A stretch of 64,000 nt of DNA, taken from the NCBI GenBank assembly GCA_020850355.1, contig JADZEX010000009.1, forward strand, positions 1 to 64,000. The letters are read 5' to 3'. Source of the stretch: Fimbriimonadaceae bacterium. Lineage in GTDB: Bacteria > Armatimonadota > UBA10988. Below, piece by piece: positions 62,761 through 64,000 of the stretch. The translations under genes were made by a program, and so were the position numbers. The notes under the pieces were generated by a model. That model did no database searches, was not told where the DNA came from, and worked only from the letters and a program-made list of their open reading frames with translations. Numbering within the stretch: the first letter of the stretch is position 1; every line of letters begins with the position of its first letter.

Positions 62761-63873
62761 ATGAAACTCCTCTCCGCGAGCATTGAGCGGTTCCGCGGCG
62801 TCAAGGAAGCGCACTTGGCACTCGCCGACCCTGACGGCGCGCCTTACCAGCGTTACTTCGTGATCGGCGACAACGGCACCGGCAAGACCACCGTGTTGCA
62901 GGCGATTGCCTGGGTGCTGGGACAGGCGACGCGGCAGTTCCGGCCGGAGCAGTTTCGCTGGTTCGGGTTCCTGCCGGAGCGGATCAGCAGTCAGGGCCCG
63001 ACCGCGATTGAGCTGGAAGTCGCCTTCGAGCAGGACGAACTTGCCGCGATCAGCGAGGTCTTCGAACTCTGGCAGCGCCACAACCCAGACCGCCCAGTGC
63101 TGGCGCCGCCGGCGGGCCAATCGAGGATCCGGCTGCGCTACAGCGCGGCGACCGGCGTCACGGCCGACGGGGGTGCGGCCGCCCTGCACCAGTTCCTCGG
63201 CCGGTTCAACATCCGGCAGTTGCTGCGCCAAGGGCAGTACGGGGCGCGGGACTACCTGGTCCGCGTCGGCGACGTGTTCTGGCTGGACCAGATGCGCAAC
63301 CTGGGCGTCGGGAGCAGCATCGCGGCAGCCGGTGGTGCCGGTGACCAACGTGGCGAGGCGGACGACACAGCAGCGGACCCGTGGCAGGCCGGCGTCGAGC
63401 AGTTGCGCGATTCGCTGGTGCGGTGGTGGTCGTACCACCGGTCGGACCGGCGCTCCCCACAAAGCCCGGACTATGTGGCCGAGATCGAGCAACGCTTCAG
63501 CGCGGTGTTTCGGGGCGCCAGATTCCTGGGCACCGAGCCGGCCCCGCCGGAGCGGCCGCCGTACTCGCCCCGCGACTACTTCTATATTGAACAGAACGGC
63601 CGGCACTACGATCTGGCCGAGATGTCAGCCGGCGAGCAGACGGTCTTCGCGTTCGTCTATCAGGCGGTGGTGAAGCGCATGGCGCGGTCGATTGTGCTGA
63701 TCGACGAGCTGGACCTGAACTTGCATCCGCCGGCGGCCCAATGGCTCTATCAGCTTCTGCCCGAGCTGGCCCAGGACTGCCAGTTCGTGTTGTCGACGCA
63801 CTCTCGCGAGCTGGTCGACCTGGCGCCCGCTGGCGCGGTGCATCGCCTGCCCGGCGGCGTGCCATGCGTGTGA
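62761..63873 (+). CDS. SMC/RecF-like AAA ATPase, 370 aa
   Basis: Single-chain ABC/SMC-type ATPase. KLLSASIERFRGVKEAHLAL is the RecF-like start, GDNGTGKT (36-43) the Walker A, EMSAGEQTVFAFVYQAVVKR the signature helix, SIVLIDELDLNLHP with Asp315-Glu316 the Walker B, and FVLSTHSRELVDL the switch His. The middle (about 90-270) lacks long coiled coils and has an insert with YSAATGVTADGGAAALHQFL and RRSPQSPDYVAEIEQRF. Such AAA15/21-type ATPases pair with nucleases in defence systems. It overlaps the next gene, which begins like a TOPRIM protein. Confidence 0.85.
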   Translation: MKLLSASIERFRGVKEAHLALADPDGAPYQRYFVIGDNGTGKTTVLQAIAWVLGQATRQFRPEQFRWFGFLPERISSQGPTAIELEVAFEQDELAAISEVFELWQRHNPDRPVLAPPAGQSRIRLRYSAATGVTADGGAAALHQFLGRFNIRQLLRQGQYGARDYLVRVGDVFWLDQMRNLGVGSSIAAAGGAGDQRGEADDTAADPWQAGVEQLRDSLVRWWSYHRSDRRSPQSPDYVAEIEQRFSAVFRGARFLGTEPAPPERPPYSPRDYFYIEQNGRHYDLAEMSAGEQTVFAFVYQAVVKRMARSIVLIDELDLNLHPPAAQWLYQLLPELAQDCQFVLSTHSRELVDLAPAGAVHRLPGGVPCV

Positions 63874-64000
63874 CCCAGCTCCTGGTGGAGGGCAGGCGAG
63901 ATCGGGCCCTCCTGGCGGCCGTGCTGCGGACCACTGGCGTCCACGTGGAGCACGTTGTTGACGGCCGGACCCGCCTGCCGCAAAGGGTCATCTACCAGCA
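63864..64000 (+). CDS. Partial gene cut by window edge; TOPRIM/DUF4435-like start
   Basis: The visible 45 residues begin MRVTQLLVEGRRDRALLAAV, where 'LLVEG.rD..ll' is the first strand and acidic residue of a TOPRIM fold, followed by HVEHVVDGRTRLPQRVIYQ. It overlaps the ATPase gene by 10 bases from ATG 63864, or by 4 (GTGA) from GTG 63870, the style usual in this window. TOPRIM-type proteins paired with an ATPase occur in PARIS- and OLD-like systems. With so little sequence, the identity is tentative. Confidence 0.5.
   Translation, partial: MRVTQLLVEGRRDRALLAAVLRTTGVHVEHVVDGRTRLPQRVIYQ

What the first reader, a model, noticed from the sequence alone, without database searches (positions are those of the whole stretch)
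62761..64000. Candidate two-gene defence module: SMC/RecF-like ATPase overlapping a TOPRIM-like gene
The ATPase has complete Walker A, signature, Walker B and switch His, but no long coiled coil, which fits the standalone AAA15/21 ATPases of PARIS- or OLD-like anti-phage systems rather than RecF or SMC. The overlapping next gene starts LLVEGRRDRALLAAV, as TOPRIM/DUF4435 nucleases do. Seen: motifs and overlap. Known: AriA (ATPase) and AriB (DUF4435) form PARIS. Inference: this pair is a related, possibly new, defence module. The window ends before the second gene can be read.
Basis: partly seen in the sequence, partly recalled or inferred. Interest (0 to 1): 0.68.

Follow-up and report, generated by a model that had tools for sequence, protein, structure and literature searches.

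The report
PARIS-like sensor ATPase and TOPRIM nuclease
Two overlapping genes encode an ATP-powered sensor and a nucleic-acid-cutting enzyme; they form a distinct, widely but sparsely spread branch of a known type of bacterial anti-virus module (PARIS-like), several relatives of which sit inside other anti-virus operons.

Summary
Extending the contig past base 64000 gave the whole second gene: 281 aa, starting at 63864 and overlapping the ATPase by 10 nt. It has the TOPRIM acidic residues (VE9G, D57-R-D59) and an invariant G-K226. Sequence profile and AlphaFold/Foldseek both place it nearest AriB of PARIS. The ATPase is an OLD/AAA_21-type ABC ATPase whose best fold match is PtuA (Septu), not RecF or SMC. 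The pair is conserved in at least five phyla. All 18 loci examined keep the same 10-nt overlap, with a Shine-Dalgarno site inside the ATPase's last codons in most. The two proteins diverge in step (r = 0.93). Relatives sit inside a BREX operon (PglX-pair-PglZ-BrxL) and a Shango operon (SngB-pair-SngC); a sister clade sits inside DISARM operons on cyanobacterial plasmids. I read it as a PARIS-like guard or back-up module: ATPase sensor, TOPRIM effector. The ATPases form their own well-supported clade beside PARIS and Septu; grouping them with PARIS is neither shown nor rejected, and no TOPRIM protein scanned passes the DUF4435 cut-off. Trigger and substrate are unknown. The window's pair is not in a defence island; a FosA-like gene follows it.

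The parts
62761..63873 (+). OLD/AAA_21-type ABC ATPase, 370 aa (putative sensor)
   Evidence: Pfam AAA_21 76.5 bits and AAA_15 59.3 bits, both over cut-off; Foldseek to PtuA E 5.5e-12
62866..62892 (+). Walker A GDNGTGKTT
   Evidence: sequence; near-invariant in A4
63622..63639 (+). ABC signature MSAGEQ
   Evidence: sequence; S289, G291, E292 invariant
63691..63708 (+). Walker B IVLIDE with catalytic E316
   Evidence: sequence; D315, E316 invariant
63793..63804 (+). switch histidine STHS (H347)
   Evidence: sequence; H347 invariant
63864..63873 (+). 10-nt overlap ATGCGTGTGA, read ..CV-stop in gene 1 and MRV.. in gene 2
   Evidence: same 10-nt overlap in 18 of 18 loci
63864..64000 (+). First 137 bases of the AriB-like TOPRIM nuclease gene (putative effector, 281 aa). 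The gene continues outside the window to contig position 64709 (L004:3864-4709). A FosA-like gene follows at contig 64706-65116 and is probably not part of the module

Best explanation
A two-gene, translationally coupled anti-phage guard module that works like PARIS. The ATPase dimerises or oligomerises on ATP and acts as the sensor that holds the TOPRIM protein inactive. An infection-specific trigger, perhaps a phage inhibitor of restriction or BREX-type systems, releases or activates the TOPRIM protein. That protein then cuts nucleic acid with two metal ions bound by E9, D57 and D59 (tRNA by analogy with AriB; DNA not excluded) and stops phage production at the cell's expense. Shown here: gene structure, motifs, AriB-like fold prediction, co-conservation, embedding of relatives in defence operons. 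Inferred: complex formation, triggering, substrate, defence activity.
For: TOPRIM gene: profile A3 finds AriB (8ux9, E 0.009); AlphaFold model pLDDT 81.9 with Foldseek top hits AriB 8v46_D E 7e-5 and 8ux9_A E 2.6e-4, then OLD TOPRIM domains; PADLOC AriB and AriAB models hit 5 and 9 of 11 members; hhalign to a DUF4435 set 98.4%. Invariant E9, D57, D59, K226. ATPase: AAA_21/AAA_15 over cut-off. Co-conservation: 18 of 18 pairs with the 10-nt overlap; embedded GGAGG, first Gly codon GGA in 12 of 16 against 4.3 expected, P 2.8e-5; Mantel r 0.93. Context: inside BREX and Shango operons; sister clade inside DISARM operons. Mobility and patchiness: 3 of 291 genomes in the own phylum, 7 of 386 cyanobacteria with full-length strong matches, two distantly placed copies in one genome. 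PARIS pairs are likewise reported inside BREX loci (PMC11341690, PMC12839542).
Against: The window's own pair, and most cyanobacterial members, lie among ordinary genes rather than defence islands. The window's TOPRIM protein alone hits no Pfam, NCBIfam or PADLOC model significantly. PARIS AriB relatives have G-H where this family has G-K. No trigger, substrate or phenotype data. Foldseek TM-scores to AriB are modest (0.32-0.43).
Confidence: 0.75

Rival explanations
1. It is simply a divergent true PARIS system (AriA+AriB) and needs no separate name.
For: AriB is the nearest solved relative of the nuclease. Forcing the ATPases together with DUF4435-partnered ATPases is not rejected (p-AU 0.067). 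Sister members are annotated DUF4435 by NCBI.
Against: In the free tree the ATPases form their own clade (100/98), while PARIS-type and Septu-type ATPases group together (99/96). The ATPase fold matches PtuA best and is about 90 aa shorter than the solved AriA chain (370 against 464). DUF4435 scores of the TOPRIM proteins scanned are below cut-off.
Confidence: 0.4
2. An OLD/Gabija-like split DNA nuclease: the TOPRIM protein cuts DNA, gated by nucleotide or ATP state, rather than tRNA.
For: OLD TOPRIM domains are the next Foldseek hits; the family has a conserved lysine near the active site, as I recall for OLD class 2 (from memory, not tested).
Against: AriB, a tRNase (PMC12409363), is the better match in both sequence and fold.
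Confidence: 0.25
3. A housekeeping RecF/SMC-type or stress gene pair without a defence role.
For: Most members lie among ordinary chromosomal genes. OLD-family ATPases with a cell-cycle role exist in archaea (PMC12796447).
Against: Patchy distribution, two unlike copies in one genome, absence from the four nearest genomes searched, plasmid copies and embedding in three kinds of defence operon. RecF is far off on the tree.
Confidence: 0.08
4. Part of a three-gene resistance operon with the FosA-like gene (stress or antibiotic response).
For: The 4-nt ATGA overlap couples the FosA-like gene to the TOPRIM gene; all three share a lower GC3 (0.86-0.87) than six neighbours (0.90-0.93).
Against: No FosA-like gene seen beside the pair in the other loci inspected.
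Confidence: 0.05

Closest known systems
PARIS (AriA + AriB)
   Same: Two adjacent genes, ABC/AAA_21-type ATPase then TOPRIM protein with AriB as nearest solved relative; VEG, D-R-(D/E)-F and ENY motifs shared; a relative embedded in BREX, as PARIS is in Salmonella
   Different: ATPase about 90 aa shorter, nearer PtuA in fold, own clade; fixed 10-nt overlap; G-K instead of G-H; DUF4435 model not passed; trigger and substrate unknown
Septu / retron-associated PtuA (with PtuB HNH)
   Same: ATPase fold (Foldseek E about 5e-12) and PADLOC PtuA model 82 bits
   Different: Partner is a TOPRIM protein, not an HNH nuclease; the next-closest ATPases found have HNH partners and form their own clade
OLD and Gabija GajA
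   Same: OLD-type ABC ATPase linked to TOPRIM; TOPRIM fold match
   Different: Two separate proteins; no helicase partner like GajB; weaker match
TOPRIM-linked OLD-ABC effectors recruited to BREX (PMC12839542)
   Same: Same architecture and, for the Verrucomicrobia member, same setting
   Different: I could not tell whether this clade is among those catalogued; Shango and DISARM embedding did not turn up in my literature searches

Membership tests
PARIS | ATPase passing AAA_15 (32 bits) or AAA_21 (27 bits), as in the published detection rule (PMC9122126) | tested here: met
   AAA_21 76.5, AAA_15 59.3 bits
PARIS | Adjacent protein passing DUF4435 (27 bits) | tested here: not met
   Window protein: no hit; six other members of the clade scanned: at most 13.7 bits; sister clade: 26.0 and 25.9. 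Caution: the current model also misses L047, a 48% relative of E. coli AriB, so this failure is weak evidence
PARIS | Second protein with AriB-type TOPRIM fold and active-site acids | tested here: met
   Foldseek AriB top two; AriB E26 aligned with E9, AriB D-R-E with D57-R-D59
PARIS | ATPase groups with AriA-type ATPases | tested here: inconclusive
   Free tree separates them; joint clade not rejected, p-AU 0.067
PARIS | Activation by Ocr or another anti-restriction protein | not testable with these tools
   needs experiment
PARIS | tRNA cleavage by the TOPRIM protein | not testable with these tools
   needs experiment
Septu | PtuA-type ATPase | tested here: met
   (similarity, not orthology)
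Septu | HNH nuclease partner (PtuB) | tested here: not met
   partner is TOPRIM
Gabija / class 1-2 OLD | ATPase and TOPRIM in one protein | tested here: not met
   two genes in all 18 loci
RecF/SMC housekeeping | Equivalog-level match to RecF or SMC | tested here: not met
   RecF 22 bits against cut-off 172; SMC 20 against 729

The most novel reading that the evidence does not exclude
A third lineage of OLD-ABC effector modules, beside PARIS and Septu, that serves as a portable guard: the same sensor-nuclease pair inserted into BREX, Shango and DISARM operons to punish phage inhibitors of those systems, each host system selecting its own trigger.
Probability: 0.3. Interest if true: 0.65.

Novelty: new variant of a known kind. 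Interest (0 to 1): 0.45.

Why it matters
PARIS is one of few bacterial systems known to sense anti-restriction proteins. A sister lineage that is repeatedly found inside different restriction-like operons would test whether guarding is a general role of ATPase/TOPRIM pairs. The TOPRIM half falls below the DUF4435 cut-off, so a Pfam-based detection rule misses at least part of this family.

Tried and rejected
Direct searches with the window's TOPRIM protein (Pfam, NCBIfam, PADLOC, PDB, plasmids) found nothing usable; profiles were needed. Viral contig scans gave no member of the TOPRIM family, so there is no evidence of phage carriage. An empty-site test failed: in the nearest relative with the fumarase gene the flank upstream of fumarase is entirely different. 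Phylum-wide searches around named loci needed a genome handle first. The key PARIS structure papers and the 2020 ABC-ATPase classification are not held. A type I specificity-like ORF upstream of the Deltaproteobacteria pair (L015) gave no Pfam or PADLOC hit, so I do not count it. No sigma-70 promoter or terminator pattern near the pair. Housekeeping RecF/SMC was rejected.

Full report
Observation. The ATPase ORF at 62761-63873 and the overlapping start at 63864 are as described. The window is G000:C10:1-64000 of a 78505-base contig, so the missing part could be read: locus L004 is contig 60001-78505. The second gene runs 63864-64709, 281 aa.

What the second protein is. Alone it matches no Pfam or NCBIfam model and no PADLOC model significantly. 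A search of 291 genomes of the same phylum found relatives in two more genomes, one with two copies, each preceded by the same ATPase. A scan with the ATPase alignment then found close pairs in Verrucomicrobia, Nannocystis, Tumebacillus, three cyanobacteria and a deltaproteobacterial genome. The 11-sequence alignment has invariant E9-G10, D13, D57, D59, G85-W-x-W, E94, Y96 and G225-K226-D227-L228. Its profile finds AriB of PARIS in the PDB (E 0.009), and PADLOC's AriB and AriAB models hit 5 and 9 of the 11 members. The AlphaFold2 model (pLDDT 81.9) has AriB as its first two Foldseek hits (E 7e-5 and 2.6e-4), then OLD TOPRIM domains. Profile-profile comparison with DUF4435 proteins of the same phylum gives 98.4% probability over the TOPRIM region. 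In AriB, the E26A Toprim mutant loses tRNA cleavage (PMC12409363); E26 aligns with E9 here.

What the ATPase is. It passes the AAA_21 and AAA_15 cut-offs and falls far short of the RecF and SMC equivalog models. The profile and the AlphaFold model match PtuA of Septu and of retrons best; AriA is a weaker sequence match. In a 57-row tree the family, a cyanobacterial sister clade and one Bacteroidetes ATPase form a starred clade (100/98). PARIS-type and Septu-type ATPases group together on the other side (99/96), and RecF is the outgroup. Holding the family with the DUF4435-partnered ATPases costs 9.4 log units, p-AU 0.067, so PARIS membership by the ATPase is neither shown nor excluded.

The pair as a unit. 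Eighteen loci were read at the junction. All 18 have the same 10-nt overlap, most often [A/G]TG[C/T]CTGTA[A/G], which encodes C-L-stop in the ATPase frame and M-P/S-V in the TOPRIM frame. The conserved Gly-Gly just before the ATPase end supplies a GGAGG: the first of the two Gly codons is GGA in 12 of 16 genes against 4.3 expected from the same genes' codon use (P 2.8e-5; the rows are not independent). In the GC-rich window gene this is GGCGG. The sister clade has a short gap instead, mostly a few nt. ATPase and TOPRIM distances correlate at r = 0.93 with 0 of 2000 shuffles as high, and both genes are under purifying selection in four close pairs.

Setting. In the Verrucomicrobia member the pair lies between PglX and PglZ, followed by BrxL. 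In Tumebacillus it lies between SngB and SngC of a Shango operon, with SngA upstream. The sister pair lies between the methyltransferase and drmA of DISARM operons in Trichormus variabilis ATCC 29413 plasmid C, a Nostoc carneum plasmid and one more genome. Most other members, including the window's, lie among ordinary genes; one sits inside a branched-chain-type ABC transporter operon (L016). The family is sparse: 3 of 291 genomes in the own phylum, 7 of 386 cyanobacteria with full-length strong matches. One genome carries two distantly placed copies (L008 and L009), and the four nearest genomes searched lack it. This fits horizontal spread.

Mechanism. By analogy with PARIS (AriA senses a phage anti-restriction protein and releases or activates AriB, which cuts tRNA; PMC9122126, PMC12409363), the likely reading is ATPase sensor plus TOPRIM effector, with translational coupling fixing their order and ratio of synthesis. 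Embedding in BREX has been read as back-up against phage counter-defence (PMC12839542), and PARIS sits within BREX in Salmonella (PMC11341690). The same logic would cover Shango and DISARM, which did not come up with PARIS-like modules in my literature searches; that is not proof of novelty. Substrate, trigger and even defence activity remain inferred.

Verdict. It is a new branch of a known kind (OLD-ABC + TOPRIM pairs). It should not be filed as PARIS proper: one published criterion (DUF4435 score) is not met and the ATPase placement is unresolved. That criterion is weak, however, since the current model also misses a close AriB relative.

Noticed in passing
contig positions 64706-65116 (L004:4706-5116), just beyond the window: FosA-like fosfomycin glutathione transferase gene starts in an ATGA overlap with the TOPRIM gene; Fos_GSH 170 bits, just under the cut-off of 180. 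ATPase, TOPRIM and this gene share a lower GC3 (0.86-0.87) than six neighbours (0.90-0.93), which would fit joint acquisition.
   Followed up: partly
L116:3976-16152 (Trichormus variabilis ATCC 29413 plasmid C) and L127: Sister ATPase/DUF4435 pair inserted between the methyltransferase and drmA of a DISARM operon on a conjugative plasmid.
   Followed up: partly
L105, L115, L057: Decayed or orphaned halves of the module: a TOPRIM fragment of 110 aa after an intact ATPase, an ATPase without a recognisable TOPRIM gene on a Calothrix plasmid, and a partial TOPRIM gene without ATPase.
   Followed up: no
L007:2301-3378: The ATPase gene of one same-phylum relative (G079) is split over two ORFs, a frameshift or assembly error.
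   Followed up: no
L016:2915-6842: The pair sits between two permease genes of a branched-chain-type ABC transporter operon, apparently inserted.
   Followed up: no
L047:2941-3873: Pfam PF14491 (DUF4435) in its current form does not detect this NCBI-annotated DUF4435 protein, a 48% relative of E. coli AriB.
   Followed up: no
L080 and L082: A further cyanobacterial ATPase + TOPRIM pair, deep-branching; the TOPRIM protein of L080 leans to the OLD-like TOPRIM model.
   Followed up: no
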